A program made the position numbers and the translations under genes. From Sinomonas sp. ASV486 (lineage in GTDB: Bacteria > Actinomycetota > Actinomycetes > Actinomycetales > Micrococcaceae), in the NCBI RefSeq assembly GCF_030908215.1, contig NZ_JAVFJK010000009.1, forward strand, positions 117,616 through 181,615: 64,000 nucleotides of DNA. Direction: 5' to 3'. Positions 11,894-52,610 of this stretch are shown piece after piece. The notes below the pieces were generated by a model. It was not told the DNA's origin. It searched no databases and saw only the letters and a program-made list of their open reading frames with translations. The stretch's first letter is position 1. Every line of letters starts with the position of its first letter.

Positions 11894-11921
11894 ACGACGG
11901 CGGGTGCCCACCCGCCGTCGT
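11894..11921 (+). terminator. Intergenic palindrome copy A
   Basis: Arms ACGACGGCGGGTG and CACCCGCCGTCGT are separated by CC, 46 bp after the MerR stop. It is a very stable stem without a U-tract, so termination is a likely but unproven role. Confidence 0.7.
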
Positions 11922-11950
11922 TCGCTGTCTGCGGACGGCCGCCAAGCGGA

Positions 11951-11997
11951 TTGAATCGGCGATACCCCTGGGGGTATGTTTGAGTGACTGGGGTCAC
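11951..11997 (+). promoter_or_regulatory. SQR promoter with CstR/CsoR-like operator
   Basis: -35 TTGAAT (11951-11956), 18-bp spacer, -10 TATGTT (11975-11980). The spacer and -10 contain ATACCCCTGGGGGTAT (11962-11977), palindromic but for one central base and nearly identical to the operators of the persulfide sensor CstR, which controls sulfide oxidation genes in staphylococci. A small inverted repeat GTGAC/GTCAC (11984-11997) follows at the predicted transcript start. Confidence 0.8.
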
Positions 11998-12084
11998 ACT
12001 GCCGATTTCCCCGGCTGTCACTGATGGCCGGCGAGTCCTTCGACAAGCGCAGCCCCTCGAAACCTGAGGAAAGGCATCACCGCG

Positions 12085-13281
12085 ATGGGCATCCACCACA
12101 AGATCCTGATCATCGGCGGCGGCAACGCCGGATTGAGCGTGGCGGCGCGGCTGCGCCGTGCGGGCCAGAGCGACATCGGCGTGCTCGAGCCGAGCGACAA
12201 GCACTACTACCAGCCCCTGTGGACCCTGGTCGGGGGAGGCCGGGCCCCGCAGAAGGAATCGGTGCGGGACCAGGCCGCGGTCATGCCGAAGGGCGTCGCG
12301 TGGATCCGTGACGCGGCCGTCGATATCGACCCGGATGCCAAGATGGTCACCACGGTGGGCGGCGCGGAGATCGGCTACGACTACCTCGTTGTCTCCCCGG
12401 GCATCCAGCTGGACTGGGACAGGATCCCAGGCATGGCCGCGGCCGTCGAATCCCCCGCGGCGTCCAGCAACTTCCGCTACGACCTGGCCCCCAAGACCTG
12501 GGACCTGATCCGGGGGATGCGGTCGGGCACCGCGGTCTTCACCATGCCCGCCGGGCCGATCAAGTGCGCCGGGGCCCCGCAGAAGATCGCCTACCTCGCC
12601 GCGGACTACTGGCGCCAGCAGGGGGTGCTGGGAAACATCCGCGTCGTGATGGTGCTTCCGACCCCGGGGATGTTCGGCGTGAAGGTCTTTGCCGACGAGC
12701 TGGAGCGGGTCGTGGCCAAGTATGGGATCGAGGTCCGCAAGAGCAGTGAGATGACCTCCGTGGATCCTCACGCCCAGGAGATGGTCATCACCGACCACGC
12801 GACCGGCGCCAGCGAGACCCTCCACTACGACATGCTGCACACCGTTCCCCCGCAGTCCGCGCCGGACTGGCTGAAGGCGACCGCCCTTGCCGACCCGAAC
12901 AATTCCGCGGGGTACGTCGAGGTTGACAAGCACACCCTCCAGCACACTCGCTACCCCACTGTCTTTTCGTTGGGCGACGCCGGCTCGACCCCGAACTCCA
13001 AGACCGGGGCCGCGATCCGCAAGCAGGCCCCCGTGCTGGTCCAGAACCTGCTCTCTGTGATGAAGGGCCAGCCCGCCGAAGCCAGCTACAGCGGCTACGG
13101 GTCCTGCCCCCTCACCACCGCGCGCAACAGGATGCTTCTCGCGGAGTTCGACTACAGCCTGCAGCCCGCGCCGAGCATCCCGCTGATCGATACGACGCGC
13201 GAGCGCTGGGACATGTGGCTGCTCAAGCGCTATGGACTGCCGTTCATGTACTGGCGGTTCATCCTTCCCGGGCGTGCCTGA
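12085..13281 (+). CDS. sqr: Sulfide:quinone oxidoreductase, type II
   Basis: Membrane-associated flavoprotein that oxidises sulfide and passes electrons to quinone. The 398 residues begin with the FAD-binding ILIIGGGNAGLSVAARL. The two redox cysteines expected in type II (mitochondrial-like) enzymes are Cys161 in GPIKCAGAPQK and Cys341 in YGSCPLTTARNRMLLAEF. The second FAD contact is FSLGDAGSTPNSKTGAAIRKQ. GAGGAAAGG precedes the ATG. No rhodanese, persulfide dioxygenase or CstR gene is adjacent, but a CstR-like operator overlies its promoter, so sulfide or persulfide induction is likely (inference). Confidence 0.92.
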   Translation: MGIHHKILIIGGGNAGLSVAARLRRAGQSDIGVLEPSDKHYYQPLWTLVGGGRAPQKESVRDQAAVMPKGVAWIRDAAVDIDPDAKMVTTVGGAEIGYDYLVVSPGIQLDWDRIPGMAAAVESPAASSNFRYDLAPKTWDLIRGMRSGTAVFTMPAGPIKCAGAPQKIAYLAADYWRQQGVLGNIRVVMVLPTPGMFGVKVFADELERVVAKYGIEVRKSSEMTSVDPHAQEMVITDHATGASETLHYDMLHTVPPQSAPDWLKATALADPNNSAGYVEVDKHTLQHTRYPTVFSLGDAGSTPNSKTGAAIRKQAPVLVQNLLSVMKGQPAEASYSGYGSCPLTTARNRMLLAEFDYSLQPAPSIPLIDTTRERWDMWLLKRYGLPFMYWRFILPGRA

Positions 13282-13329
13282 GGGTGCCTCGGCGTGGCAT
13301 TGACTGAAGGCCGACAATAAGGCGGGCGG

Positions 13330-13357
13330 ACGACGGCGGGTGCGCACCCGCCGTCGT
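13330..13357. terminator. Intergenic palindrome copy B, bidirectional terminator
   Basis: ACGACGGCGGGTGC and GCACCCGCCGTCGT abut to form a 28-bp perfect palindrome, extended outward by imperfect GGCGGGCGG/CCGTCCGCC pairing. It lies between the convergent sqr and oxidoreductase genes and is followed by TTTCATTT, the best U-tract of any copy. Confidence 0.8.
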
Positions 13358-13371
13358 CCGTCCGCCTTTCA

Positions 13372-13387
13372 TTTAGACCGGTCTAAA
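13372..13387. promoter_or_regulatory. Distal LacI-type operator at the 3' end of the oxidoreductase gene
   Basis: TTTAGACCGGTCTAAA is a perfect 16-bp palindrome with the central CG usual for LacI-family sites. It is identical to the site in the promoter region at 14667-14682, and the oxidoreductase stop codon is part of it. Two identical sites 1,295 bp apart suggest looping or roadblock repression. Confidence 0.8.
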
Positions 13388-14576
13388 GAAGCCGCACATC
13401 CTCCCATGCACCGGCAGAATCAGACCGTTCCGCGGCCTCGAGGACCTCGGCGACCCGCCAGCCGTCCTCGAAGGATGGGTACGCCTGGGTGCCGTCGAGG
13501 ATCGCCTGGAAGAAGTTGCGGATCTCAACCGCCTTGAGCTCGTGGAGCCCGATCGTGACGCCGGGGAATGGCCAGAACGCGGCGTAGTCGCCGTGCCCTG
13601 GACCGAGCGTCACGGTGGTGCTGCCCGGGAATGCCGTGGGCTCCCCGCCGCGCAGGAACAGCTCGACCTTGTAGGAGTCCTGCTGCGAGAAGCGCACGGA
13701 GCCCTTCGATCCGAACACCTCGACCCCGAGGTCGAACGGGTGGCCGTTGGCCACCCGACTTGACTCGATGGTCACGGACGCGCCGGAGACGAGGCGGCCG
13801 AGCACGGTCGCGACGTCGTCGTTCTCCACCGGAAGCAGCGGCGCGTCTGCAGCGGCCTGAGACCCGTACGAGAGCGCACCCGAGGCCTCGGGCCGCTCCC
13901 GCACCATGGTCGCGAGGTCGCCGAAGACCCGCGTGATGGGCCCGCCGAGCGCCTGCACGAGCGAGATCACGTGCGATCCGATGTCCCCGAGAGCCCCGAG
14001 GCCGGCCTTGCCGCGCTCGTAGTGCCAGGTGCGGGGGAGTGACGGGTCAGCGTTCGCGTCGACCACGAAGTGCCCCTTGATGCTCCACACGTCCCCGAGC
14101 GTGCCGTCGTCGATGAGCCTCCTGATGAGCTGCACGCCTGGGTTGCCGAGGTACGAGAAGCCCACGAGGGTGGTCACACCGGCGTCACGTGCCGCCTCCC
14201 ACATCGCCCGGGCCTCCTTGGCCGTGATCGCGAGCGGCTTCTCGCAGTAGACGTGCTTGCCGGCGGCGATGGCCTCCATGGCCACCTCGTAGTGGAGCCA
14301 GTTCGGCGTCACGATGTCCACGACGTCGACCTCGGGATCGTGCACCGCCGCGTGCCAGTCGCTCGTCCAGCGGGAGAACCCGAGCTGGCGTGCGCCGGCC
14401 TCGGCACGCGCGTCGTCCACGTCGGCGAGCACGCTGAGCTCGGGCGCCGCGGGAAGCGCTGGGAAGAGCGTGGGGAGGGCCCCGTACGCGAGGGTGTGGG
14501 ACTTCGCCATGAGCCCGGCGCCGATGAGGGCGACGCGGAGCCTGCGCGTGTTCTGGGTCGTTGGACTGATCGTCAT
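13383..14576 (-). CDS. Gfo/Idh/MocA family oxidoreductase
   Basis: NAD(P)-dependent sugar or polyol dehydrogenase-type protein of 397 residues. The Rossmann motif is VALIGAGLMAKSHTLAY, the family signature is VYCEKPLAITAKEA, and the C-terminal domain contains WHYERGKAGLGALGDIGSH. AAGGAA precedes the ATG. It is divergent from two TIM-barrel isomerases across a shared operator, and a second identical operator overlaps its stop codon. With those neighbours it probably acts in the breakdown of an inositol-like or rare sugar. The substrate cannot be deduced. Confidence 0.9.
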   Translation of the reverse strand: MTISPTTQNTRRLRVALIGAGLMAKSHTLAYGALPTLFPALPAAPELSVLADVDDARAEAGARQLGFSRWTSDWHAAVHDPEVDVVDIVTPNWLHYEVAMEAIAAGKHVYCEKPLAITAKEARAMWEAARDAGVTTLVGFSYLGNPGVQLIRRLIDDGTLGDVWSIKGHFVVDANADPSLPRTWHYERGKAGLGALGDIGSHVISLVQALGGPITRVFGDLATMVRERPEASGALSYGSQAAADAPLLPVENDDVATVLGRLVSGASVTIESSRVANGHPFDLGVEVFGSKGSVRFSQQDSYKVELFLRGGEPTAFPGSTTVTLGPGHGDYAAFWPFPGVTIGLHELKAVEIRNFFQAILDGTQAYPSFEDGWRVAEVLEAAERSDSAGAWEDVRLL

Positions 14577-14654
14577 CGAGCATTTCCTTATTCCGCCGCG
14601 TGAGCGGCACGTCCGGCCGCCGGAAAGACCGGCGCGGAATCAGGATAGGCCATA

Positions 14655-14694
14655 TTGACGAGAATGTTTAGACCGGTCTAAAGTCCATTTTCAA
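14655..14694. promoter_or_regulatory. Divergent promoter and operator of the sugar locus
   Basis: On the forward strand TTGACG (14655-14660), 18 bp, TAAAGT (14679-14684) drives the isomerase genes. On the reverse strand TTGAAA (14694-14689) and TAAACA (14670-14665) could drive the oxidoreductase. The perfect palindrome TTTAGACCGGTCTAAA (14667-14682) overlaps both -10 regions. The LacI protein at 16729-17748 is the likely binder. Confidence 0.8.
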
Positions 14695-14754
14695 CAACAT
14701 CAGCCGGTCCCTCGGCCCGAAGCAAGGACGTTCGATGAACCAGGAAGCCCCACG

Positions 14755-15762
14755 ATGAGAGTCGGCCTCTACCTCGCCGCGCTCATGGATCTCCCCCTCC
14801 GCGACGCGCTCTCGATGGCGCACGGCTGGGGCATCACCGATGCCGAGGTCCCGGCCGGCGGTTTCAACCCCTACGGCCACTGCAACCCCGGTGCGCTCGT
14901 CGCCAGCGCCGCCGCGCGCGACGAGTTCCTCGGCCTGTTCGCCGAGACCGGGGTCAACCTCGCGATCCTCAACGCGAACAGCAACCCCCTCCACCCCGAC
15001 CCCGAGGTCAGCGTTCCGCACCGGAAGGACCTCCGGGACGCGATCGTGCTGAGCTCCCAGCTCGGCCTCGACCGGCTCAACGCCATGGTCGGCAGTGTGG
15101 GCTCCGGACCGGGCGCCACGCTGCCCACGTGGTCGCTCGTGCCGTGGGAGAGCGGCCTGCTCGAGGTCCGCGACTACCAGTGGTCCGTCGCGCTGCCGTA
15201 CTGGAAGGAGACCGCGGCCTTCGCCGAGGACCACGGCGTCCGGCTCGCGCTGGAGATCCACCCGCACATGCTCACCTACAGCCCCGCCACGCTCGAGCGG
15301 TTCCTCGACGCCGTCGGGTCGGAGTACCTGGGTGTGAACCTCGATCCGAGCCACCTGTTCTGGCAGGGCATCGATCCGAACCGCATGGCCGCACGGTTCA
15401 CCGGGCGGATCTGGCACGTTGCCGCGAAGGACACCGTGCTCGTGCCCGAGAACATCGCCGAGTGGGGCCTCCTCGACGACCGGTACGCGTACATCCCGTC
15501 CGAGGAGAAGCCCCAGCCGCTAGGCGGCCGCTACCTCACCACCCGGCCGCCGGCGGACGGGCCGTGGCATTTCGTCGCAGCCGGACGCGGGCACGACGTC
15601 GCATGGTGGACCGACTTCCTCGCCACCGTGCGCCGCGCGGGCTTCGACGGCGCCGTCTGCATCGAGAACGAGGACTGGGACCTGCCCCGCGAGGAGTCCA
15701 TCCCCGTCGCCGCGCGGACGCTGCGCGCCGCCATCGGCATCGCCGAGCCCACCCACGCCTGA
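14755..15762 (+). CDS. Sugar phosphate isomerase/epimerase (xylose isomerase-like TIM barrel)
   Basis: 335 residues of the AP-endonuclease 2/xylose isomerase-like barrel family. Metal-site residues are suggested by ALEIHPHMLTY, GVNLDPSHLFWQGIDP, HVAAKDTVL and the C-terminal CIENEDWDLPRE. It is the first gene rightward of the divergent operator, followed after 86 bp by a second barrel of the same superfamily. In such loci these enzymes isomerise or dehydrate keto-sugar intermediates made by the Gfo/Idh/MocA enzyme; the exact reaction is unknown. Confidence 0.88.
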   Translation: MRVGLYLAALMDLPLRDALSMAHGWGITDAEVPAGGFNPYGHCNPGALVASAAARDEFLGLFAETGVNLAILNANSNPLHPDPEVSVPHRKDLRDAIVLSSQLGLDRLNAMVGSVGSGPGATLPTWSLVPWESGLLEVRDYQWSVALPYWKETAAFAEDHGVRLALEIHPHMLTYSPATLERFLDAVGSEYLGVNLDPSHLFWQGIDPNRMAARFTGRIWHVAAKDTVLVPENIAEWGLLDDRYAYIPSEEKPQPLGGRYLTTRPPADGPWHFVAAGRGHDVAWWTDFLATVRRAGFDGAVCIENEDWDLPREESIPVAARTLRAAIGIAEPTHA

Positions 15763-15770
15763 CCGCGTCT

Positions 15771-15804
15771 GGCGCACGACGGCGACCGCTCGCCGTCGTG
15801 CGCC
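15771..15804 (+). terminator. Intergenic palindrome copy C
   Basis: Arms GGCGCACGACGGCG and CGCCGTCGTGCGCC with a 6-nt loop ACCGCT, 8 bp after a stop codon and between two co-oriented isomerase genes. If it terminates, it would lower expression of the second gene relative to the first. Confidence 0.65.
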
Positions 15805-15848
15805 GCCTCACCACCCGCCGCCTCGCCGCCCCCATCAAGGAGCACACC

Positions 15849-16697
15849 ATGAAGATCACCCTCGACCCGCTGCCCTTCCGCCACCTCCCCATCCCCGAGA
15901 TGGTCCGCACCGTTGCCGACCTCGGGTACGAATGGATCGAGTTCTCCCAGCGGGACGACTTCTTCCCCTTCTACCTCTACCCGCGCGCCAACGACGCCCT
16001 CGTCCAGCAGCTCAAGGCCGCGCTGAAGGAGACCGGGGTGAAGATCGCCTCTGTGCTGCCGATCCTTCGTTGGTCCAGCCCGGACGAGGACGAGCGCCAG
16101 GCTGCCGTGCGCTCCTGGATGCGTTCGATTGACATCACGGCTGAACTGGGCGTGGACCAGATGAACTCCGAGTTCTCCGGCCGCCCCGAGCAGAAGGAGC
16201 GCAGCGAGGCCCAGTTCCTGCGCTCGATGGAGGTGATCCTGCCCCGCCTCGAGAAGGAGGGCATCAAGCTCAATATCGAGCCGCACCCGGACGACTTCAT
16301 CGAGGACGGCATCGAGGCCGTGCAGATGATCCGCGGCCTCAACTCGCCCAACATCGGGTTCCTGTACTGCGTGCCGCACACGTTCTACCAGGGCCACGAG
16401 CCGGCCACGATCGTCGAGTACGCCGGGCCGGACCTCAAGCACCTGCACCTCGCCGACTCGTTCGACTACCGCGCGTCCGGCGGCCGCCGGTACCTGCTCA
16501 ACCCGGCGGAGACGAACGCGACCGTGCACCAGCACCTCCCGTACGGGCAGGGCGAGGTGGACCTCGACGGCTTCTTCGCAGCGCTCAAGCGCGTGGACTT
16601 CGATGGCATCGCGACCGTGGCCGTGTTCTCGCAGGAGGAGAAGGCCGTGGAGAACTCCATCTGGATGCTCGAGGAGACCAAGAAGCGCCTCGCCTGA
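15849..16697 (+). CDS. Sugar phosphate isomerase/epimerase, second copy
   Basis: 282 residues, TIM-barrel isomerase of the same superfamily as the upstream gene but clearly different in sequence. Typical segments are LGYEWIEFSQRDDF near the N-terminus, KLNIEPHPDDF, and DLKHLHLADSFDYR, which carry the metal-binding Glu, Asp and His. AAGGAG precedes the ATG at a short distance. It belongs to the LacI-controlled sugar locus. I cannot name the substrate. Confidence 0.87.
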   Translation: MKITLDPLPFRHLPIPEMVRTVADLGYEWIEFSQRDDFFPFYLYPRANDALVQQLKAALKETGVKIASVLPILRWSSPDEDERQAAVRSWMRSIDITAELGVDQMNSEFSGRPEQKERSEAQFLRSMEVILPRLEKEGIKLNIEPHPDDFIEDGIEAVQMIRGLNSPNIGFLYCVPHTFYQGHEPATIVEYAGPDLKHLHLADSFDYRASGGRRYLLNPAETNATVHQHLPYGQGEVDLDGFFAALKRVDFDGIATVAVFSQEEKAVENSIWMLEETKKRLA

Positions 16698-16715
16698 GGT
16701 GCTCGGGCGCTCACC

Positions 16716-16721
16716 TAGGCT
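16716..16721 (+). promoter_or_regulatory. -10 box of the LacI gene (leaderless)
   Basis: TAGGCT lies 7 nt before the GTG at 16729. This decides the start: in-frame GTG 16741 and ATG 16756 lack properly spaced ribosome binding sites. Confidence 0.45.
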
Positions 16722-16728
16722 TGTCGCT

Positions 16729-17748
16729 GTGGATGAGGGAGTGAAACGGGCGACCATGGCCGACGTCGCCGAGGCCGCCAGCGTGTCCAAGGCGCTCGTC
16801 TCGCTCGTCTACCGCCAGCCCGAGAAGGTCAGCCCCGAGCGCCGCGCCCGCGTGCACGCGGCCGCCGAGCGCCTCGGCTTCCGGCCCAACTGGGTCGCGA
16901 GCTCGCTGTCCGCCTACCGGGGGAGCTTCATCGGCATCCTCGTCTCGAATCTCCACAACCCACTGTTCGCGACGATCGTCGACACCGTCCGGACCGAGCT
17001 GGACGCCGTGGGCCGCTACGGGCTCATGTCGAGCGCCGTGATCCAGGACCGGGACGGCACGTACCGGACCGACCGGCGGATCGTGCAGGCCTTCGAGGAC
17101 CTCAACGCCTCGGCCCTGCTCGTCGTGGGCGTGACGCCGGACCTCGCTGACCTCCAGCGGCTGCGGCCCGGCATCCCGATCGTCGTGGCCGCCGCGTCCA
17201 TCGAGGAACTGCCCCGGGCCGTGTCGGTGCGCTCCGACAGCGAGATCGGCATGCGGGCGGTCGTCGACCACCTCGTGTCGCTCGGGCATCAGCGCATTGT
17301 GCACCTCGGCGGTCAGGGCGGACCCGCGAGCCGACGGCGCGCGGAGGCCTACGCGCGCGCGATGGCGGAGCACGGACTCGCGGACCACGTGCACGTCGAG
17401 CCGGCGGAGTTCGATGAGGCGAGCGGCCGGGCTGCCGCGGAGCGCGTCCTGAGCGCGAGGCCCGGGAGCACAGCGCTCGTGTGCGTCAACGACCTCGTTG
17501 CGCTCGGCGCGATGAGCGAGGCTGCGGAGCGCGGCCTGCGCGTGCCCGAGGATGTCGCGATCACGGGCTACGACAACACGTTCCTCGCCGGCATTGCGGC
17601 CGTCGGCCTCACGTCGGTGGACACCGAGGCGCAGGAGATCGGCCGGGTTGCCGCCTCGTGGCTCGCTTCCGACGAAGCCCTCCCCGCCCCCGGCACCGAG
17701 GTGCTCATCCCGCCGAGGCTGGTGGTCCGCCGCTCGACGGCGGGGTGA
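16729..17748 (+). CDS. LacI family regulator of the sugar locus
   Basis: About 339 residues. The N-terminal helix-turn-helix reads TMADVAEAASVSKALVSLVY, followed by the hinge region FRPNWVASSLSAYRGSFIG, which has the usual helix contacting the central CG of operators. The periplasmic-binding-like effector domain ends in GYDNTFLAGIAAVGLTSVDT. It is encoded next to two identical TTTAGACCGGTCTAAA sites, which are its likely targets. The effector is probably a pathway intermediate or the sugar itself. Confidence 0.9.
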   Translation: MDEGVKRATMADVAEAASVSKALVSLVYRQPEKVSPERRARVHAAAERLGFRPNWVASSLSAYRGSFIGILVSNLHNPLFATIVDTVRTELDAVGRYGLMSSAVIQDRDGTYRTDRRIVQAFEDLNASALLVVGVTPDLADLQRLRPGIPIVVAAASIEELPRAVSVRSDSEIGMRAVVDHLVSLGHQRIVHLGGQGGPASRRRAEAYARAMAEHGLADHVHVEPAEFDEASGRAAAERVLSARPGSTALVCVNDLVALGAMSEAAERGLRVPEDVAITGYDNTFLAGIAAVGLTSVDTEAQEIGRVAASWLASDEALPAPGTEVLIPPRLVVRRSTAG

Positions 17749-17775
17749 GAGCGTCTCCCGGCACGGGGTGGGCGC

Positions 17776-17803
17776 ACGACGGCGGGTGCGCACCCGCCGT
17801 CGT
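17776..17803. terminator. Intergenic palindrome copy D
   Basis: A 28-bp perfect palindrome (ACGACGGCGGGTGC and its complement) lies between the convergent LacI and alcohol dehydrogenase genes, 27 and 39 bp from their stops. A bidirectional terminator is the natural reading. Confidence 0.75.
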
Positions 17804-17842
17804 CCGCGCTCCTGGTCAGCCGTCAGCCGTGGTCGGCGCCGG

Positions 17843-18865
17843 TCAGAGGGTGAGCAGCACCTTGGTGGCGAGCCGCTCGTCCATCGCCCGGTAGCCCTCG
17901 GCCGCCTTCTCGAGGGGGAGGGTGAGGTCGAAGACCGCGCCCGGGTCGATCTCGCCGTCCAGGATGAGCCGGATCAGCTCGGGGAGGAATTGCCGGACCG
18001 GGGCCGGGCCGCCGTGGAGGTGGACGCCGGAGAAGAACAGCTCGAGGCCCGGCAGGGCGACGTCGTGCGAGACGCCCACATAGCCCACGTGCCCGCCCGC
18101 GCGGGTTGCGCGGATGGCCTGCATCATCGACTCCTGCGTGCCGACGGCCTCAATGGTCGAGTGGGCGCCGAGCCCGTCCGTAAGCTCCCTGATCTTCGCC
18201 ACGCCCTCGTCGCCGCGCTCCTCGACGATGTCCGTCGCGCCGAAGCGCCGGGCGAGTTCCTGCCGGTCGGCGTGGCGGCTCATCGCGATGATCCGCTCGG
18301 CGCCCAGCTGCTTTGCGGCGAGCACCCCGAGGAGCCCGACGGCGCCGTCGCCCACCACCGCGACAGTCTTGCCCGGCCCGGCCTCGGCGGCGACCGCGGC
18401 GAACCAGCCGGTCCCCAGGACGTCCGAGGCGGCGAGCAGGCCCGGGATCTCCTCCGGCCGCGGCGGGCGTGGCGTCGCGACGAGCGTCCCGTCGGCGAGC
18501 GGGATTCGCAGGAGCTCGGCCTGGGTGCCGAGCGCACCCATCGGCTCGCGGTGGACGCAGTGCGACTGGTAGCCGGCGCGGCAGATCTCGCACGTGTTGT
18601 CCGAGGCGAAGAACGAGCCGACCACGAAGTCGCCCACCTTGACGTTCTTCACGTCGTCGCCGACCTGCTCGACAATGCCGACGTACTCGTGGCCCATCGG
18701 AGTGGGCCGCTCCACTGGGTCCGCGCCGCGGTACGGCCACAGGTCCGAGCCACAGATGCAGGCCGCGGCGACGCGGATGACGGCGTCGGTGGGCTGCTCG
18801 ATGACCGGGTCGGCGCGCTCCTCGACGCGGACGTCCCGGGGTGCGTACATGACTACTCCACGCAT
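17843..18865 (-). CDS. Zinc-dependent alcohol dehydrogenase family protein
   Basis: 340 residues of the medium-chain dehydrogenase family. Catalytic zinc ligands are Cys38 (with Cys36) in ACICGSDLW and His59-Glu60 in PMGHEYVG. The structural zinc lobe reads DNTCEICRAGYQSHC, with Cys92, Cys95 and Cys103 but Asp at the fourth ligand position. The NAD(P) motif is VAVVGDGAVGLLGVLAAKQLG. The start has GGAAGGAA 7 nt upstream and overlaps the 3' end of the MFS gene by 13 nt, so both are co-transcribed. Substrate unknown. Confidence 0.9.
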   Translation of the reverse strand: MRGVVMYAPRDVRVEERADPVIEQPTDAVIRVAAACICGSDLWPYRGADPVERPTPMGHEYVGIVEQVGDDVKNVKVGDFVVGSFFASDNTCEICRAGYQSHCVHREPMGALGTQAELLRIPLADGTLVATPRPPRPEEIPGLLAASDVLGTGWFAAVAAEAGPGKTVAVVGDGAVGLLGVLAAKQLGAERIIAMSRHADRQELARRFGATDIVEERGDEGVAKIRELTDGLGAHSTIEAVGTQESMMQAIRATRAGGHVGYVGVSHDVALPGLELFFSGVHLHGGPAPVRQFLPELIRLILDGEIDPGAVFDLTLPLEKAAEGYRAMDERLATKVLLTL

Positions 18866-20190
18866 GTGGGTGTTCCTTCCAGTGTGAGTTCCGCTGCGAG
18901 TTCGGGCGCGGCGGGTGGTGTGGGGCGCACGACGGCGGTCCGGCTGGCTCTGTGGGGAGTGCCGGCCGTGCTGCGGGTCGGGCGGGCGAGGAAGACGAGG
19001 CCGGCCGTGGCCGCGAGCATGATGACCGTGACCGAGACGAGGCCGAGCGGGAGGATGCTGAAGGCACCGGCGACGCCGACCAAGGGCGCGGCCACGCCGC
19101 CGAACGCGAACCGCGCCCCGCCCAGCACCGATGATGCCGTCCCCGCCATGTGCGGGTAGTCGGCCAGTGCGATCGCGGTGGACGGCGGGCTCGTCACCGC
19201 AGCGCCGCTGACCACGAGGAGCAGGGACGCCATCACGACGGCGAGGGGCACGTGCGCGAGCCCTGCGACCAGGAGCCCCGTGGCACCGGCGCCGCACATC
19301 GCCAGGCCGATGGCCAGCATCCCGCCTGCGCGCCACCGTTCGCTGAACCGGCCAGACAGGTAGCCGAAGACCATGAAGCCCGCAGAGTTCAGCCCGAACG
19401 CCATCGCGTACTGCTGGGGTGAAAGGCCGTAGATCCCCTGGAGGACGAAGGTCGCGCCGGCCAGGTACGCGAAGATCGCGGAGTTGACGAAGCCCTGCAC
19501 GAGCACCGCCCCGACGAAGCCGCGGTCGGAGAGCAGCACGCGCAGGTCCCGGCCCACCCGACCGAATCCGCCAGCGGTCCGGGCCTCGTGGGGGAGGGTC
19601 TCGCGGAACCCGAGGGCGACGCTCGCGAGGATGGCGGCGCCGATGGTCGCGAGGACCAGGAACAGCCCGCGCCAGTCCATGACCGCGGTCAGCGCACCGC
19701 CGAGCATCGGTCCGACGATGGCCGCGAAGCCGCCCACTACGGTCAGGCGCCCGTAGAAGCGGATCAGCCGCGTGCCGTTGTACAAGTCACGGCCGGATGC
19801 CTGCGCGATCACGATCCCGACGCCGCCCGCGAGGCCCTGCACGAGCCGCGCCGCGATGAGGACCTCAACCGTGGGGCTCGCGGCGCACAGCGCCGAGACC
19901 GCCACGTAGGCCGCGACGCCGACGAGGAGCGGCCCCCGCCGCCCGAGGCGGTCGGAGAGCGGGCCCGCGATGAGCTGGCCGCCGGCAAGTCCGAACAGGC
20001 ACGCCGTCACGGTCAGCTGCGCGAGCGAGGTCGCCGCCCCGAGCTCGGACGTGAGCGCCGGCAGTGCCGGCAGGTAGAGGTCCATGGAGATGGGCCCGAA
20101 GACCGTCAGGACCAGCAGGAGGGTCGCCAGAGTGCGGCCGATGCGGGGGCCACGACCGAGCGATGCCCGGGTGGAAAGGGAAGCTGTCAC
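18853..20190 (-). CDS. MFS transporter, Bcr/CflA family
   Basis: 445 residues, 12 predicted membrane helices. The Bcr/CflA pattern is clear: FGPISMDLYLPALPALTSEL, then GPLSDRLGRRGPLLVG, then GRDLYNGTRLIRFYGRL. These proteins export bicyclomycin, sulfonamides, chloramphenicol or cysteine. I chose the GTG at 20188-20190; a GTG 22 codons earlier would run into the promoter of the divergent XRE gene. Its C-terminus has a Pro/Ala-rich tail that contains a half copy of the intergenic palindrome. It overlaps the alcohol dehydrogenase downstream and faces an XRE regulator. Confidence 0.88.
   Translation of the reverse strand: MTASLSTRASLGRGPRIGRTLATLLLVLTVFGPISMDLYLPALPALTSELGAATSLAQLTVTACLFGLAGGQLIAGPLSDRLGRRGPLLVGVAAYVAVSALCAASPTVEVLIAARLVQGLAGGVGIVIAQASGRDLYNGTRLIRFYGRLTVVGGFAAIVGPMLGGALTAVMDWRGLFLVLATIGAAILASVALGFRETLPHEARTAGGFGRVGRDLRVLLSDRGFVGAVLVQGFVNSAIFAYLAGATFVLQGIYGLSPQQYAMAFGLNSAGFMVFGYLSGRFSERWRAGGMLAIGLAMCGAGATGLLVAGLAHVPLAVVMASLLLVVSGAAVTSPPSTAIALADYPHMAGTASSVLGGARFAFGGVAAPLVGVAGAFSILPLGLVSVTVIMLAATAGLVFLARPTRSTAGTPHRASRTAVVRPTPPAAPELAAELTLEGTPTCVE
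18924..18938. repeat. Half copy of the palindrome family inside a coding sequence
   Basis: GGCGCACGACGGCGG, the left arm of the intergenic family, lies within the C-terminal codons of the MFS gene. It may mark a former intergenic copy absorbed by a shifted stop codon, or be chance. Confidence 0.35.
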
Positions 20191-20278
20191 CCCACCAGCA
20201 CACCGTGTCCGGCCGGGCGGCGGGAGTCCCTGCTGAAAGGTGTACCGGGAGGGCACCCCTCGCCGGTCCTCAGGGACG

Positions 20279-20284
20279 TACGCT
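20279..20284 (+). promoter_or_regulatory. -10 box of the XRE regulator gene (leaderless)
   Basis: TACGCT lies 7 nt before the ATG at 20292. No strong -35 is seen. Confidence 0.4.
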
Positions 20285-20291
20285 CTACGGC

Positions 20292-21173
20292 ATGGACAAT
20301 CGAGCCGAGGTCCGCGAGTTCCTCATGTCGCGGCGCGCCAAGCTCACCCCCGAGCTCGCCGGGATCCCCGCGGGGCCCAACCGGCGCGTGGCCGGGCTGC
20401 GCCGCTCCGAGGTCGCGATGGCGGCCGGCGTCAGCGTCGAGTACTACGCCAAGCTCGAGCGCGGCACCATCGCGGGGGCCTCCTCCTCCGTCCTAGACTC
20501 GATCGCCACGGCACTGCAGCTCGATGACACCGAACGGGCCCACTTGTTCGACCTGGCCCGAGCGGCCGACGGGATCCCCACGTCGGGGCGGGCGCGCCGT
20601 CGCTCCGACGCGAATCCCGCCACCCGGCCCAGCCTTCACTGGGCTCTCGAGGCCATCACCGACGGCGTCGCGTTCGTCCGCAACGCGCACCAGGACCTTG
20701 TCGCGACCAATGCCCTCGGCCGGGCGTTCTACTCCCCGGTGGTCGGCGATGGCGGGCGTGTGCCCAATCTGGCCCGGTTCCAGTTCCTCGACCCGGCCGC
20801 GCGCGACTTCTACCCGGACTGGGACCGCTTCGCCGAGATGTGCGTCGCGGTCATGCGGGCCGAGGCCGGCCGCGACCCGCACGACCGGGGCCTGCAGGAC
20901 GTCGTCGGCGAGCTCTCCACGCGCAGCGATGTGTTCCGCCGGCTCTGGGGAGCGCATGATGTGCGCACCCACGGTGCCGGGACCAAGCGCTTCGTCCACC
21001 CGGTGGTCGGCGAGGTGACCTTCGCGTACGAGGAGCTCGCCATCACCGCGGAGCCCGGTCACGTCCTGCTGATCTACACCGCGGAACCGGGCTCGCCCTC
21101 GGCCGAGCGGCTGCGCCTCCTCGCCTCCTGGGCGGCCGAGCATCCGGCACCCGTGTCGGCCGACCCCCGCTGA
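20292..21173 (+). CDS. XRE family regulator with MmyB-like ligand-binding domain
   Basis: 293 residues. The N-terminal helix-turn-helix contains RVAGLRRSEVAMAAGVSVEY and YYAKLERG, the standard opening of this actinobacterial family. The C-terminal two-thirds is an MmyB-like PAS-type domain (SLHWALEAITDGVAFVRNAHQD, LVATNALGRAFYSP, HPVVGEVTFAYEEL) that can bind fatty-acid-like ligands in studied members. It is divergent from the MFS-alcohol dehydrogenase pair by about 100 bp and is its probable regulator (inference). Confidence 0.92.
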   Translation: MDNRAEVREFLMSRRAKLTPELAGIPAGPNRRVAGLRRSEVAMAAGVSVEYYAKLERGTIAGASSSVLDSIATALQLDDTERAHLFDLARAADGIPTSGRARRRSDANPATRPSLHWALEAITDGVAFVRNAHQDLVATNALGRAFYSPVVGDGGRVPNLARFQFLDPAARDFYPDWDRFAEMCVAVMRAEAGRDPHDRGLQDVVGELSTRSDVFRRLWGAHDVRTHGAGTKRFVHPVVGEVTFAYEELAITAEPGHVLLIYTAEPGSPSAERLRLLASWAAEHPAPVSADPR

Positions 21174-21198
21174 ACTCCCGCGGGCGGCCCCCACTGAA

Positions 21199-21213
21199 GC
21201 CGGCCGCGCCGGC
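21199..21213. terminator. Short GC hairpin between convergent genes
   Basis: GCCGGC-CGC-GCCGGC lies between the XRE and D-threonine aldolase-like stops. It is short and lacks a U-tract, so it is a weak terminator candidate. Confidence 0.4.
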
Positions 21214-21219
21214 GGCGTG

Positions 21220-22320
21220 CTACCTGTTCATGCCCCTCGCGGCGACGCGCCACCGGTCCACGACGCGCCCGCCGCTGACCACCGCGACCTCGTCGACGAG
21301 GTTCACGGCCACGCACACGTGGTTCGGGATCACGCGCACGCGCTCGCCGAGGGCCGGCAGGGGAGCATCCTCGGGGAAGACCACCGTTGCGTGATGCTCC
21401 GACAGGCCCGTGATCCGGGCACCGGGGAAGTCCATGAGCCGGCCGAAGCCCGTGGCCCACGCGGGCCGGTCTCCGCCCAGGACCTTGCTGCCCGCATCGA
21501 GCACGATCCGCCGGGGAACCACCGAGTCGCCCTCGTGGCGGCTCACCACAGTGGCCGCGACGGTGAGGGCGATGTCCTCGAGCGCACACCGGCCGAGCTC
21601 GAGCTGCTGCGCATCGCCGAACACATACACGCCCGGCCGAACCTCCGTGGTGGTGCCCGCCTCCGTGAGCAGGGCGCTCGGCGTCGAGCCGCCGCTCACG
21701 CGCGTGATCTCAAGGCCCGCGTCCGCGAGCAGCCTCGCGGCCTCACCGAGGGCACGCTGCTCCTGGGCGGCGGCCTCGGTAGGCATCCCCGGCGCGTACG
21801 AGTGGCCGGGGAACGTGAAGACGCCGGCCACCCGCAGCCCGGCATCGGCCGCGGCCCGGGCCACCTCGACTGCCTGGGTGGGCGCGACCCCGCTGCGGTG
21901 GTGCCCGCTGTCGATCTCCACGAGCACCTCGATGGTCCCCGCGGCCTCGCCGAGCGCGGTTCCCATGGCCCGCGCGGCCTCGGCCGAGTCGGTCCCGACC
22001 GCGATCCGGGCCCGCCCGGCGAGCCGCCGCAGCCGCTCTGCCTGCCGCGGCCCGACCCACAGCGGATACGCGACGAACAGGTCCGTCACGCCGCGATCGG
22101 CGAACAGCTCGGCCTCGCCGATCGTGGCGACGGTCAGCCCGACCGCCCCGGCGGCGAGCTGCAGCTCGGCGATCTCGGGGATCTTGTGCGTCTTCGCATG
22201 CGGGCGCAGCGCGAGGCCCTTCGCAGCGACCCCCTCGGCCATCCGGGCGATGTTCCGGGCCAGGATCTCGCGATCGACCATGATCTCCGGGGTGTCGATC
22301 TCATGCGGGACTGTGGTCAA
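21220..22320 (-). CDS. D-threonine aldolase/D-serine dehydratase-like PLP enzyme
   Basis: 366 residues of the fold-III (alanine racemase-like) DSD1/D-threonine aldolase family. The PLP lysine lies in [14 protein letters not shown] near the N-terminus, and the metal site typical of the family is in [10 protein letters not shown] and [14 protein letters not shown] near the C-terminus. Such enzymes cleave D-threonine to glycine and acetaldehyde or deaminate D-serine and 3-hydroxyaspartate. It starts at TTG with AGGAG 7 nt upstream. It is preceded by the two-component system, with palindrome copy E between them. Confidence 0.9.
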
Positions 22321-22367
22321 CGGGTTCTCCTGAGGCTGTCGGCTGGCGGTATCCCAAGCTTAGGCGA

Positions 22368-22403
22368 GCGCACGACGGCGGGTGCCCGCCCGCCGTCGTG
22401 CGC
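22368..22403 (-). terminator. Intergenic palindrome copy E
   Basis: Arms GCGCACGACGGCGGG and CCCGCCGTCGTGCGC with a 6-nt loop, 4 bp after the response regulator stop. It should isolate the two-component operon from the enzyme gene downstream. Confidence 0.72.
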
Positions 22404-22407
22404 CCGG

Positions 22408-23058
22408 TCAGTCCCGGCTGAGGTGGCGCATGACGGCGAGCACGCGCCGGTGCGAATCGGCATCGCGGGGCAGCTGGAGCGCGTCATAGATGTTGGACGT
22501 GTGCTGGACCACCGCCTTCTCGGTCAGGAAGAGCTCCACGGCGATCCGGGCGTTGCTGCGCCCCTCCGCCATGAGCGCGAGCACCTCCTGCTGGCGCGTC
22601 GTGAGGCCCCTGACCGCGCCGTCGGAGCGCCGGGCGCGGGCGAGCATGACGGACACGACCTCGGGATCGAGGGCGGTCCCGCCGCTGGCGACGTTGCGGA
22701 GGTCTCCGAGGAAGGTATCGACGTCGGCGATGCGCTGCTTGAGGAGGTAGCCCACGCGACCGTCGGGCGAGGCGAGCAGCTCGCGGGCGTAGCGCCGCTG
22801 GACGTGCTGGGAGAGGACCACGACGGCGGTCCGGGGGTGCAGGCGGCGGATCCTGAGGGCCGCGACGAGCCCCTCGTCGGTGTGGGTCGGCGGCATCCGG
22901 ATGTCGGTGACCACGAGGTCCGGACGGTGCTCTTCGACGGCGGACTCGAGGGCCTCCGCGTCGGCCGTGGCCGCGACGACCTCGAAACCGCCGTCCTCCA
23001 GGAGGAGCTGCAGCCCGCGCCTCAGGAGCGCCTCGTCTTCCCCGATGATCACGCGCAT
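22408..23058 (-). CDS. NarL/LuxR family response regulator
   Basis: 216 residues. The receiver domain has the acidic pair GEDEALL, phospho-acceptor Asp52 in DLVVTDIRMPP, and conserved Ser and Lys in VVVLSQHV and GYLLKQRI. The LuxR DNA-binding helix reads LTTRQQEVLALMAEGRSNARIA and TEKAVVQHTSNIY. It overlaps the histidine kinase by 10 nt and is its partner. The HTDEG insertion after the phospho-site is common in this subgroup. Targets are not evident; the lipoprotein gene upstream of the kinase is one candidate. Confidence 0.93.
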   Translation of the reverse strand: MRVIIGEDEALLRRGLQLLLEDGGFEVVAATADAEALESAVEEHRPDLVVTDIRMPPTHTDEGLVAALRIRRLHPRTAVVVLSQHVQRRYARELLASPDGRVGYLLKQRIADVDTFLGDLRNVASGGTALDPEVVSVMLARARRSDGAVRGLTTRQQEVLALMAEGRSNARIAVELFLTEKAVVQHTSNIYDALQLPRDADSHRRVLAVMRHLSRD

Positions 23059-24836: not shown

Positions 24837-24873
24837 ATTTCGGGGCCGTCCAGCTGCCGCTTCCGTTACGCGC

Positions 24874-26175
24874 TCACGCCTTCGGGTTAGGCTTGAACTC
24901 GTGGCCCAGGGCCGCGGAGACAGAGACGAAGATCCGGCTCGCGGGGTCCATGCACGACAGCTGCTTCGGCGTGTCCGGCAGGGTTGCTGACTCCGTGCAG
25001 CCGCCCGAGGGGATGTCGCTGTTGGCGAGAACGGTCACGGTCGTGTCGGAGCGCGTGTCGTAGAAGAGGCTCGTGTTGAACCCGGGGATCTCGCCCGTGT
25101 GCCCGAGCCACCCGTCGATGCAGCCCACGGCGAGGCCGTAGCCCGCCGGCCCGGGGATCGACGCGAGCCGCTCGGTTTGGGTCTTCTCGTCGAGGAGCCC
25201 CTGACCCGTCGCCATGGCCCGCCCGTACACGAGGAGGTCGGCGGCCGACGAGGTCAGCTCTCCCGCCGACCAGGCCCAGGTGGGGTTCCACGCGGTCGCG
25301 TCCTGCGGCGTCGTCTGCCCGTCGGGGAGCCCCTGGAGGGTGAGACCGGTCGCGTGCGGGGAGGGGAGCGCGCCGCTGGCGCCCGGCATCGAAGTCCCCG
25401 AGAGCTTGAGCGGTGCGATGACGTAGTTCTGGAGCGCGTCCGTGTAGGTCGTTCCCGTGACCTTCTCCATGACCTTGCCGAGCAGGAGCGTGTTCGTGTT
25501 CGAATAGTCGAACTTCGCGCCCGGCTCGAACTGGCGGGGGAGCGCGAGGCCGAGCGCGATCAGCTGATCCGGCGTCCACACCTTGTTCGGGGTGGTGAAG
25601 AGGTCGTGCTGGAACGTCGTGTCGAGGGAGTAGCTCGGGACCCCGCTCGTCATGTTCAGCAGCAGGCGGAGGGTCACCTCGTCGCCGCGGGGGACGCCCG
25701 GGACATAGCGGCTGATCGGGTCGTTGAGGGAGACCCTGCCGTCCTGGACCAGCCTGAGGACCACCGTTCCCGTGAATGTCTTGGTGACCGAGCCGATGCG
25801 CTGGTACATGTCCACCGTCATGGGCGCCCTCGTGGTCTGGTCCGCGAGGCCGAACGCCTTGATCCATGTCCCCTGTGGGCTGCGGATGGCGACGATCGCG
25901 CCCGCCGTCGAGGCCTGCGCGAGGCCATCCTGCGCGGCTTTGTCGAGGGCGGCCGCGGTCGCCGCGGGCATCGGGCCCGACGCCGCCGCAGGGAGCGTGC
26001 GCCGGATGACCGCCTGCGGGTCTGCCACGCATGCCGCTGCTGCGCTCGCGGACGACGGCGCGGTCCCGCTGCTCGCGCTGGGGTTGCTCGTGCTCGCCTG
26101 CTGCGGTGCTGCGCAGCCGCTGAGTGCGAGCACGAGTGCCCCGGCCGCCGCGCCGTAGAGCCATCCACGATCCAC
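24874..26175 (-). CDS. Serine hydrolase lipoprotein (beta-lactamase/DD-peptidase family)
   Basis: 433 residues. The signal peptide ends in a lipobox, ALVLALSGC, so the protein is anchored outside the membrane. The three penicillin-recognising motifs are present: SVTK with Ser129 and Lys132, YSN in DYSNTNTLLL, and HTG in LGHTGEIPG. This is the class C beta-lactamase/D-alanyl-D-alanine carboxypeptidase-like (S12) family. A role in cell-wall trimming or esterase activity is likely; a true beta-lactamase is possible but not shown. GAGGGGA precedes the GTG. The histidine kinase follows after 37 bp. Confidence 0.9.
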   Translation of the reverse strand: MDRGWLYGAAAGALVLALSGCAAPQQASTSNPSASSGTAPSSASAAAACVADPQAVIRRTLPAAASGPMPAATAAALDKAAQDGLAQASTAGAIVAIRSPQGTWIKAFGLADQTTRAPMTVDMYQRIGSVTKTFTGTVVLRLVQDGRVSLNDPISRYVPGVPRGDEVTLRLLLNMTSGVPSYSLDTTFQHDLFTTPNKVWTPDQLIALGLALPRQFEPGAKFDYSNTNTLLLGKVMEKVTGTTYTDALQNYVIAPLKLSGTSMPGASGALPSPHATGLTLQGLPDGQTTPQDATAWNPTWAWSAGELTSSAADLLVYGRAMATGQGLLDEKTQTERLASIPGPAGYGLAVGCIDGWLGHTGEIPGFNTSLFYDTRSDTTVTVLANSDIPSGGCTESATLPDTPKQLSCMDPASRIFVSVSAALGHEFKPNPKA

Positions 26176-51279: not shown

Positions 51280-51289
51280 GCTGACCTAC

Positions 51290-51332
51290 CGACGCCGGCG
51301 AGCCTCCCACGCGGGGCGGCTCGCCGGCGTCG
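51290..51332. terminator. Bidirectional terminator hairpin
   Basis: Perfect 15-bp arms CGACGCCGGCGAGCC and GGCTCGCCGGCGTCG with a 13-nt loop between the convergent S53 and RelA/SpoT genes. It is not a member of the ACGACGGCG family. Confidence 0.75.
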
Positions 51333-51412
51333 TTCGTGTCTGCACAATGCCTCGACCATGGCGTCTCGTTCGGCGGCCGCCCTTCGCCATTCCGCTGGCG
51401 CCCTGCTCGGGT

Positions 51413-52513
51413 TCAGGCGAGCCGGTAGCGCTCGATCTGCTTGAGCCTGCGCAGGAGGGAGTCGCGCCGCGGGTGGGACCCCGCGTCGGCCGGCTCGGCG
51501 GTGAGCTCGATGTGCTCGGGGCCGTACTGCCACAGGAGCAGGTCGTCGAGCAGGCGGTCAGGCCCGGGGGAGTAGCGGTGGTCGAGCGCCTTGCGGACCT
51601 CGGTGATGCGCTCGGCGTCGAGCAGCTCGACGAGCTGGCGCGTCTGGGTCAGCCCGTGGGCGGCGGCGAGTTCCGCGGCCCAGGCCCAGTCGTCGTCGAT
51701 CTTGCGGTCCACGTGCGGCAGGAGCGTCAGCCACACATCGCGGATGCGATCGGGGGTGAGGGGCCCAGCGCCCTCGCCCGCCTCGTCCCAGAAGCCGCGC
51801 ACCTTCTCGTAGCGGTCGTGCAGCTCGGCGAACTCCTTCTCGACAACCTCGAGCATGGCCGCCGTGGCCGTGAACTGGCGGTCGAACTGCGGGCTCCAGG
51901 CGCGCGGGTCCTGGCCCTTGAAGCGGATGTCGTGCTCGATCTCGCTCCACGCGTGCGCGAACACCGTGCGGATCTGGCACTCGAAGAAGTACGAGCCGTT
52001 GGCCGGGAGCTCAGGGTTGAACTCGGCCTGGTACGCGCGCACGGCGTCGTTCTGGAGGGTCCTCAGGATCAGGTGCCGGCTCGAGTACCCGTACGTCCCG
52101 GACTCGATCGAGCCGATGGCCTTCTCCCGGTCGCCGCGGCAGTCGAAGATCTGCCGCTGCCGCTTGATGAGGTTGGCCACCGATGCGTTCTCGGCGGGGA
52201 GCTTGGTGATGACCCGGACGCCCACCATGTCGTTGAGGGTCCGGAAGGGGTCGGGGAACTTGAGGGTCGGCTCGCCGCCGGGCACCGCAGGGGGGTCGAG
52301 CCGAGAGATCTTCTCGCGGAACGACTCGACCGTCTTGGTGCGGCCCGTGATGAAGAGAGGATCGACCTCGGCGTCCCTGAACATCGCGATGAGCGTGCGG
52401 AGCACGTCCTGCGTGATGTTCTTCAGCTCGGGCCGCACGCGCTCGTACGTCGCGACGGAGGCGTCCACGATGGCGCGCTGCGCGGCGTCGAGGCGGTCGT
52501 AGTTGGAGACCAT
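51413..52513 (-). CDS. RelA/SpoT-domain (p)ppGpp synthetase-like protein
   Basis: 366 residues. The nucleotidyltransferase signature is present: ITGRTKTVESFREKISR, LNDMVGVRVITKL and the tyrosine/Gly loop SGTYGYSSRHLIL, then FFECQIRTVFAHAWSEIEHD. There is no hydrolase HD domain and no TGS/ACT domains, so it is a small alarmone synthetase type with an extended C-terminal helical region. It would make (p)ppGpp or a related pyrophosphorylated nucleotide under stress. The ATG follows GAGG closely; a GTG 9 nt earlier is possible. Confidence 0.9.
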   Translation of the reverse strand: MVSNYDRLDAAQRAIVDASVATYERVRPELKNITQDVLRTLIAMFRDAEVDPLFITGRTKTVESFREKISRLDPPAVPGGEPTLKFPDPFRTLNDMVGVRVITKLPAENASVANLIKRQRQIFDCRGDREKAIGSIESGTYGYSSRHLILRTLQNDAVRAYQAEFNPELPANGSYFFECQIRTVFAHAWSEIEHDIRFKGQDPRAWSPQFDRQFTATAAMLEVVEKEFAELHDRYEKVRGFWDEAGEGAGPLTPDRIRDVWLTLLPHVDRKIDDDWAWAAELAAAHGLTQTRQLVELLDAERITEVRKALDHRYSPGPDRLLDDLLLWQYGPEHIELTAEPADAGSHPRRDSLLRRLKQIERYRLA

Positions 52514-52580
52514 GAGCCTCACGGTAGCAACCGTCACCAATACCAGTCCGCCCGCATGACGTGGCGTGATGCGCTGGGCG

Positions 52581-52610
52581 CACGACGGCGGGTGCGCACC
52601 CGCCGTCGTG
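52581..52610. repeat. Intergenic palindrome copy I, in a divergent promoter region
   Basis: CACGACGGCGGGTGC and its complement abut, giving 30 bp of perfect dyad symmetry. Unlike every other copy, it lies between two start codons (RelA/SpoT-like and DUF4389 genes), so a terminator role is not obvious here. Confidence 0.85.

What the first reader, a model, noticed from the sequence alone, without database searches (positions are those of the whole stretch)
11894..52610. Nine-copy family of near-perfect intergenic palindromes
Nine elements share the core ACGACGGCGGG(TG) and its complement: 11894-11921, 13330-13357, 15771-15804, 17776-17803, 22368-22403, 27807-27834, 29969-30008, 31549-31576 and 52581-52610. 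Half copies are at 2541, 10967, 18924 and 32418. Eight full copies lie 0 to about 60 bp after stop codons, in both convergent and co-oriented gaps. Only 13330-13357 has a clear U-tract. They may be lineage-specific terminators, REP-like mobile hairpins, or sites for a protein. Density here is about one per 7 kb.
Basis: partly seen in the sequence, partly recalled or inferred. Interest (0 to 1): 0.75.

Follow-up and report, generated by a model that had tools for sequence, protein, structure and literature searches.

The report
Sequence-conserved terminator-like hairpins in Sinomonas
A soil bacterium ends dozens of its genes with near-identical DNA hairpins that most likely stop transcription, and many of them lie at the borders of gene blocks that differ between related species.

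Summary
Nine palindromes are at the stated places; eight carry the exact core ACGACGGCGGG and 15771-15804 is a variant. They belong to a family of at least 68 loci in this genome (probably Sinomonas), matched in 15 of 15 genus and 41 of 61 family genomes; a draw of 296 class genomes gave 15 with a match, 12 outside the family. Copies sit after stop codons (69 of 75 facing gene ends within 150 bp, median 28), favour convergent gaps and avoid divergent ones. The stem beside the core changes in compensated pairs. In lower-GC relatives the hairpin has a T-enriched tail. Best reading: a lineage-specific, sequence-conserved intrinsic terminator, mostly without a U-tract here. Termination itself is untested.

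The one-per-7-kb density is local: the window holds a species-variable gene hotspot with palindromes at module borders. In 7 of 7 convergent pairs whose genes each have a palindrome elsewhere, one shared palindrome remains, hinting at recombination between copies. Against that, split junctions were no more frequent at palindromes than at other gene ends (14/159 versus 29/344).

The parts
11894..11921 (.). palindrome, exact core; 46 bp after the stop of the MerR-type gene 11092-11847 (+), co-oriented gap
13330..13357 (.). palindrome, exact core, arms of 25 nt at 96%, A-rich/T-rich flanks; convergent gap between 12085-13281 (+) and 13383-14576 (-)
   Evidence: z -8.1
15771..15804 (.). palindrome, short subtype ACGACGGCGA-CCGC-TCGCCGTCGT; after the stop of 14755-15762 (+)
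17776..17803 (.). palindrome, exact core; convergent gap between 16756-17748 (+) and 17843-18850 (-)
22368..22403 (.). palindrome, exact core; 9 bp after the stop of 22408-23058 (-)
27807..27834 (.). palindrome, exact core; convergent gap, touching the stop codon of 27834-28808 (-)
29969..30008 (.). palindrome, exact core, arms of 17 nt 100% complementary; after the stop of 29019-29963 (+)
31549..31576 (.). palindrome, exact core; after the stop of 30142-31506 (+)
52581..52610 (.). palindrome, exact core; the exception, between divergent gene calls 51413-52513 (-, RelA_SpoT domain) and 52755-54170 (+, DUF4389)
10967..10984 (+). lone 5' arm (half copy) just after the stop of 9973-10959 (+)
2541..2560 (+). 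degenerate half copy in a convergent gap
32413..32432 (-). lone 3' arm (half copy) at the stop of gene call 31966-32415 (+)
11894..32500 (.). species-variable gene hotspot holding eight of the nine palindromes, between genes found together in relatives (11092-11847 on one side; 32568, 34817 and 35293 on the other)

Best explanation
The palindromes are a Micrococcaceae family of bidirectional, sequence-conserved transcription-terminator hairpins, most abundant in Sinomonas among the genomes searched. When RNA polymerase passes the stop codon, the nascent RNA folds into a GC hairpin of 10-28 bp (mean 16) built around the core ACGACGGCG(GGG). The hairpin stops or releases polymerase, mostly without a U-tract in this 70%-GC genome (an I-shaped terminator) and with a U-enriched tail in lower-GC relatives. 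Being palindromic it can serve both genes of a convergent pair. It tends to stay with its gene when neighbourhoods are reshuffled, so copies pile up in variable regions such as this window. Shown here: position, pairing, covariation, taxonomic limits, association with module borders. Inferred: that it terminates transcription. Not explained: why so many unrelated genes share one core sequence (spread by copying with genes, or recognition by a factor).
For: Of 68 own-genome loci (E<=1e-3) 29 are in co-oriented gaps, 23 convergent, 3 divergent, 13 inside gene calls; of the 45 scoring >=40 bits 24 are co-oriented, 17 convergent, 3 divergent, 1 inside, while 49 of the 196 gaps of >=30 bp in the same stretches are divergent. 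69 of 75 facing 3' ends lie within 150 bp of a stem; among these the median is 28 bp and 61 of 69 are within 61 bp. In 53 loci of other genera: 40 co-oriented, 14 convergent, 2 divergent, 1 inside, 1 edge. Over all 80 named loci palindromes lie in 2 of 71 divergent and 86 of 287 other gaps, p = 1e-7. T in the first 8 nt after the stem: other genera 2.66 versus 1.36 background, 16 of 67 ends with >=4 T. Covariation: 7 of 19 pairs change on both sides in 21 copies, 22 doubly changed cells versus 11.3 shuffled; the pair next to the core is G-C 43, C-G 42, T-A 2 of 115 non-orthologous Sinomonas copies (paired 0.76, expected 0.45) and T-A 17, G-C 16 of 39 elsewhere (0.90, expected 0.41). RNA fold z -2.3 to -8.1 for the nine. 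15 of 15 genus and 41 of 61 family genomes match (own included).
Against: No RNA data. In this genome T after the stem is only 1.39 of 8 against 1.07 background, 4 of 69 ends with >=4 T. Mycobacterial polymerase is reported to need a U-tract in vitro (Czyz 2014: title seen in reference lists only; paper not held), though a review says I-shaped terminators work (PMC12288462, passages). Three copies of >=40 bits lie in divergent gaps, one of them in this window. In the 23 named Sinomonas loci 8 of 37 copies fall inside gene calls. Covariation further out is weak, and one shuffle measure (further pair types) was reached by 55 of 500 shuffles. Core fixity is partly by selection: 20 of the 21 model copies and all 80 named loci were found by the exact core; of the 48 other own loci 26 have both 9-nt arms exact. 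The lower divergence of the core between two strains (8/522 versus 70/1972, p = 0.016) is likewise flattered by choosing copies on the own sequence. 86 of 180 intergenic hairpins are in no shared family, so termination alone does not need this core.
Confidence: 0.75

Rival explanations
1. 3'-end protector: transcription is ended by Rho downstream and the hairpin is where 3' exonucleases stop, fixing the mature mRNA end and its stability. The DNA looks like a terminator but does not terminate.
For: Mostly no U-tract here. The S. clavuligerus Term-seq paper says U-lacking structured ends may be I-shaped terminators or 3' ends of Rho-terminated transcripts (PMC8269248, passages). A review calls Rho-dependent termination dominant in mycobacteria (PMC12288462, passages).
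Against: T enrichment after the stem in lower-GC relatives points to intrinsic termination. Use in convergent gaps fits both readings.
Confidence: 0.17
2. REP-like mobile hairpin spread by a REP-associated tyrosine transposase (RAYT).
For: Many copies with unrelated flanks (115 non-orthologous copies in the Sinomonas stretches); clustered.
Against: No Y1_Tnp match in the own genome, with 5 of 14 control genomes positive (relatives not searched). Copies have their own complementary pair beside the core, which a copied fixed unit would not have. Strong bias to gene 3' ends. No match in phage or plasmid records for one 68-nt query.
Confidence: 0.04
3. Operator or architectural site for a DNA-binding protein that recognises the symmetric core.
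For: One symmetric core at many unrelated genes and in several genera; inside-out arrangement absent.
Against: Placed after stops and away from divergent promoter regions; compensated base-pair changes beside the core are not expected of a duplex-DNA site.
Confidence: 0.05
4. Integron-like cassette array: gene plus palindrome is a cassette moved by a site-specific recombinase, the palindrome acting like attC.
For: Gene-plus-palindrome units recur beside different neighbours. A 386-bp unit from a ribosome-binding site (my reading of the sequence) through a small gene to the palindrome occurs at two places in the sister strain, with homology ending at the palindrome edge.
Against: Integron-integrase model TIGR02249: 0 of 15 genus genomes over its cut-off (lower-scoring matches in all 15, as in all 14 controls, none of which passes the cut-off either, so there was no positive control). 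Blocks lie in both orientations and many hold several genes. Split junctions no commoner than at other gene ends.
Confidence: 0.02
5. DNA-uptake sequence doubling as terminator, as in Neisseria and Haemophilus.
For: Known precedent for terminators made of paired uptake words (PMC1852404, passages).
Against: 243 copies of the 11-mer in 4.28 Mb, palindromes included, 19 for the backwards control, against the 1,000 or more that the paper gives as general for uptake signals.
Confidence: 0.02

Closest known systems
I-shaped (U-less) intrinsic terminators of mycobacteria and other high-GC bacteria
   Same: GC hairpin, no or weak U-tract, within about 50 bp of the stop (features as given in PMC12288462, passages)
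   Different: described there by shape; the present family shares one 9-11 nt core at dozens of unrelated genes and in several genera
TRIT, the tuberculosis rho-independent terminator motif of Gardner et al. 2011 (RNIE)
   Same: a terminator motif of one actinobacterial lineage (recalled; a passage in PMC3526491 only names a TRIT model)
   Different: different lineage; sequences could not be compared because the paper is not held
REP / BIME elements with RAYT
   Same: repeated extragenic palindromes after genes
   Different: no RAYT in this genome, copy-specific stem beside the core, terminator-like placement
Uptake-sequence terminators of Neisseria and Pasteurellaceae
   Same: terminator hairpins built from an inverted pair of a fixed word (PMC1852404, passages)
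   Different: far too few copies of the word for an uptake signal
HS-U-lack transcript ends of Streptomyces clavuligerus Term-seq (PMC8269248)
   Same: structured, U-poor 3' ends in a high-GC actinobacterium
   Different: no shared core sequence appeared in the passages seen

Membership tests
Intrinsic terminator, I-shaped | strong hairpin just after the stop codon | tested here: met
   69 of 75 facing 3' ends within 150 bp, 61 within 61 bp; folds z -2.3 to -8.1 for the nine window copies
Intrinsic terminator, I-shaped | no U-tract | tested here: met
   1.39 T in 8 versus 1.07 background; 4 of 69 with >=4 T
Intrinsic terminator, I-shaped | stops transcription | not testable with these tools
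   no RNA data
Canonical intrinsic terminator (hairpin plus U-tract) | U-rich tail | tested here: inconclusive
   enriched in other genera (2.66 versus 1.36, 16 of 67 ends with >=4 T); weak in Sinomonas (1.39 versus 1.07 own; 1.59 versus 0.99 in named loci)
TRIT | match to the published TRIT model | not tested
   paper not held
REP with RAYT | Y1_Tnp transposase in the genome | tested here: not met
   0 matches in the own genome; 5 of 14 controls positive
Integron cassette array | integron integrase | tested here: not met
   0 of 15 genomes over the cut-off of TIGR02249; none of the 14 controls passes it either
DNA uptake sequence | a thousand or more copies of the word in the genome | tested here: not met
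   243 copies of the 11-mer in all
Known Rfam RNA | Rfam match at gathering score | tested here: not met
   0 matches in the window

The most novel reading that the evidence does not exclude
The palindromes are terminators that also act as recombination seams. Because many modules end in the same palindrome, crossing-over between two copies joins two modules tail to tail or deletes what lies between, and leaves one working bidirectional terminator. This would explain the shared core, the clusters in variable regions and the single palindrome between genes that each own one elsewhere.
Probability: 0.2. Interest if true: 0.75.

Novelty: new member of a known kind. Interest (0 to 1): 0.42.

Why it matters
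Whether U-less hairpins terminate transcription in high-GC actinobacteria is disputed. A family with one core, used at dozens of unrelated genes and with lower-GC versions that do carry a U-enriched tail, is a natural series for testing that question. Its place at the borders of gene blocks in a variable region also makes a link between terminators and gene shuffling testable.

Tried and rejected
Mobile REP reading: RAYT search negative in the own genome. Integron reading: integrase search negative over cut-off. Uptake-signal reading: too few words. The palindrome as a hot spot of insertion or deletion: junctions split by an insert in another genome were 14 of 159 with a palindrome and 29 of 344 control gene ends in the same stretches, so no excess; this counts against the seam reading. 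So does the comparison of own and sister strain in the second cluster, where 6 of 9 palindrome gaps and 7 of 11 other gaps are kept. Homology ends at the far edge of the palindrome in 192 of 480 one-sided matches against 24 of 807 controls, but that is expected merely because the palindrome is conserved, and that table contains overlapping fetched stretches of the sister strain, so I do not use it. The broken-adjacency counts show that palindromes lie in the variable part, not that they cause the variation; genome pairs there are not independent. Two palindromes in one gap do occur, in 5 of 134 gaps, four of the five more than 1 kb apart and one of the five in the own genome by an assembly gap. 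One search found 29 orthologous pairs, 48 queries without a match (probably because only part of the sister genome was fetched) and 2 partial matches; one pair (C5:4014) lies by a poorly assembled stretch. Rfam gave nothing in the window.

Papers. Searches for the core sequence (10 papers, unrelated by title), Sinomonas plus palindromes (3 papers) and Arthrobacter or Micrococcaceae with terminators or palindromes (15 and 10 titles listed of 195 and 259) showed no description of this family in the listings. A REP catalogue has an Arthrobacter row in a table (PMC12306157, passages), so such hairpins may be counted there without a name. A term search of PMC3733652 (GTAG/CGTC-tagged repeats) found no actinobacterial terms. 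The library holds open-licence papers only.

Rows dropped: 4 of the 80 named loci (one Pseudonocardia, one Pseudoxanthomonas, two Xanthomonas) were left out but are in the 80-locus table; ten Sinomonas loci of genomes also held under G handles were left out. The own-genome count of 68 is a floor (150 candidates scored; loci of E above 0.001 were mostly not fetched). One search scored 19 candidates per genome.
Full report
What was checked. Eight carry ACGACGGCGGG on both arms with a 6-nt spacer; 15771-15804 is a shorter subtype with ACGACGGCGA. The full pattern occurs at 20 places in the 4.28-Mb genome, 8 of them in the window, with 0 hits for the backwards pattern and 0 for the inside-out arrangement. 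A covariance model (R1, from the 21 copies of alignment A1) finds 68 distinct loci at E<=1e-3 in the fetched stretches of the own genome. Of these 20 have both 11-nt arms exact and 46 both 9-nt arms.

Whose genome. The window's genus contains G066, a single contig of 3,939,870 bases, the length that one search gives for the Sinomonas sp. R1AF57 chromosome, and G036 and G063 contigs with the lengths of S. notoginsengisoli and S. atrocyanea contigs; I take the organism to be a Sinomonas (inference). With the model, 41 of 61 family genomes in 23 of 31 genera match, and 15 of 15 genus genomes (27-125 matches, both strands counted). A class-wide draw of 296 genomes gave 15 with a match; 12 of these lie outside the family with 1-4 matches, the best at E 1.3e-9 in one genome and 7e-7 or weaker in the rest. 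The family is thus spread over many genera and rare outside one bacterial family.

Anatomy. The stem outside the core varies but pairs: 7 of 19 pairs change on both sides in 21 copies, with 22 doubly changed cells against 11.3 in shuffles; one of the five measures, further pair types, was reached by 55 of 500 shuffles. In 115 non-orthologous Sinomonas copies the pair next to the core is G-C in 43 and C-G in 42 (paired 0.76, expected 0.45); in 39 copies of other genera it is T-A in 17 and G-C in 16 (0.90 against 0.41). Further out the excess is smaller. The core's fixity is partly a matter of how copies were found (exact core in 20 of 21 model copies and in all named loci). Between two strains of the species the core has changed at 8 of 522 sites and the flanks at 70 of 1972 (p = 0.016), again for copies chosen on the own sequence. 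The nine window copies fold as RNA better than shuffles, z -2.3 to -8.1.

Position. Gene ends are from my own codon-usage caller; all 19 of its proteins that I scanned match known families at E<=1e-3, many below curated cut-offs. Of 68 own loci 29 are co-oriented, 23 convergent, 3 divergent and 13 inside gene calls; 12 of the 13 inside hits score under 40 bits. Gaps of 30 bp or more in the same stretches are 102 co-oriented, 45 convergent and 49 divergent (stretches chosen for their hits). Of 75 facing 3' ends 69 lie within 150 bp of the stem, median 28 bp. The 53 loci of other Micrococcaceae repeat the pattern: 40 co-oriented, 14 convergent, 2 divergent, 1 inside, 1 edge; the 23 named Sinomonas loci have 19, 7, 0, 8 and 3.

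U-tract. In this genome the first 8 bases after the stem hold 1.39 T on average, background 1.07. In other genera, mean GC 63%, the figure is 2.66 against 1.36, and 16 of 67 ends have 4 or more T. One hairpin family with a U-enriched tail where GC allows and a poor one where it does not is what a terminator family would look like (inference). A review describes U-less I-shaped terminators within 50 bp of the stop as typical of mycobacteria (PMC12288462, passages); the opposing in-vitro paper is known to me from reference lists only.

Why the window is so dense. The stretch 11.9-32.5 kb lies between genes found together in relatives (11092-11847 on the left; 32568, 34817, 35293 on the right). 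In the relatives compared it holds other sets of genes, with palindromes at many borders, or next to nothing and no palindrome. Among gaps able to hold a terminator, those with a palindrome are kept in some relative in 5 of 23 cases, those without in 51 of 83 (p = 0.0009); in a second cluster 3 of 28 against 16 of 38 (p = 0.006; the two strains of one species, not compared with each other there, keep 6 of 9 and 7 of 11). The palindrome tends to follow its gene to new neighbours: of 347 pairs of homologous gene ends with different neighbours both have it in 100, one in 86, none in 161. In the closed sister genome the two largest clusters are at 158-200 kb and 1152-1209 kb.

Recombination between copies. 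In relative G036 the genes that flank palindromes 11894 and 17776 of the window face each other across a single palindrome, and the 5.8 kb between is absent there. A like case lies in the second cluster. In a third, the sister strain has an intact palindrome in one copy of a gene pair, where the other copy has a half palindrome, about 1 kb of insert and a full palindrome. Of 7 convergent pairs whose two genes each have a palindrome with other partners, 7 have just one between them; two palindromes in one gap are rare in general, 5 of 134 gaps, only one pair of them within 1 kb. Against this, the rate of split junctions is the same as at other gene ends (14/159 and 29/344). I keep the seam reading as a hypothesis at 0.2.

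What is not explained. Of 180 distinct intergenic hairpins in the Sinomonas stretches 82 share ACGACGGCG and 86 are in no shared family (stretches partly chosen for palindromes). In the relative stretches chosen by gene homology and not for palindromes, strong hairpins in co-oriented and convergent gaps were 16 of the family and 40 others. So termination by itself does not need this core. Either copies spread by duplication and recombination with their genes, or something reads the core. Found negative: RAYT in the own genome, integron integrase over cut-off in 15 genomes, Rfam in the window, phage and plasmid records for one 68-nt query.

Verdict. A real family of terminator-type hairpins that I did not find described (searches); ordinary in kind, unusual in its shared sequence and in lying at the borders of variable gene blocks.

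Noticed in passing
window 11900-32500: Species-variable hotspot carrying sugar- and inositol-type dehydrogenase relatives, LacI-type regulators, sugar-type and other MFS transporters and a two-component pair.
   Followed up: partly
L256:935-1320 and G069:C1:1167749-1168134 (L259): A 386-bp unit running from a ribosome-binding site through a small gene to the palindrome is present at a second place in the sister strain at 97% identity, with homology ending at the palindrome edge.
   Followed up: partly
L256:2780-2789 and 5518-5527: Two runs of N with homopolymer junk in the own genome fall at palindromes, so draft assemblies may undercount the family.
   Followed up: no
window 51413-52513 and 52582-52609: The one copy in a divergent gap lies upstream of a gene with a RelA_SpoT domain; the longest start of that frame (52756) would put it inside the gene.
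   Followed up: no
window 10967, 2541, 32413: Lone arms at gene ends may be remnants of split palindromes, as seen in the own genome at about L272:10313-10337.
   Followed up: partly
Sinomonas stretches: Four intergenic inverted repeats share TAACTATAC; AT-rich, perhaps an operator rather than a terminator.
   Followed up: no
window 54222-54270 and 51290-51332: Two other strong hairpins in convergent gaps without the family core, probably ordinary terminators.
   Followed up: no
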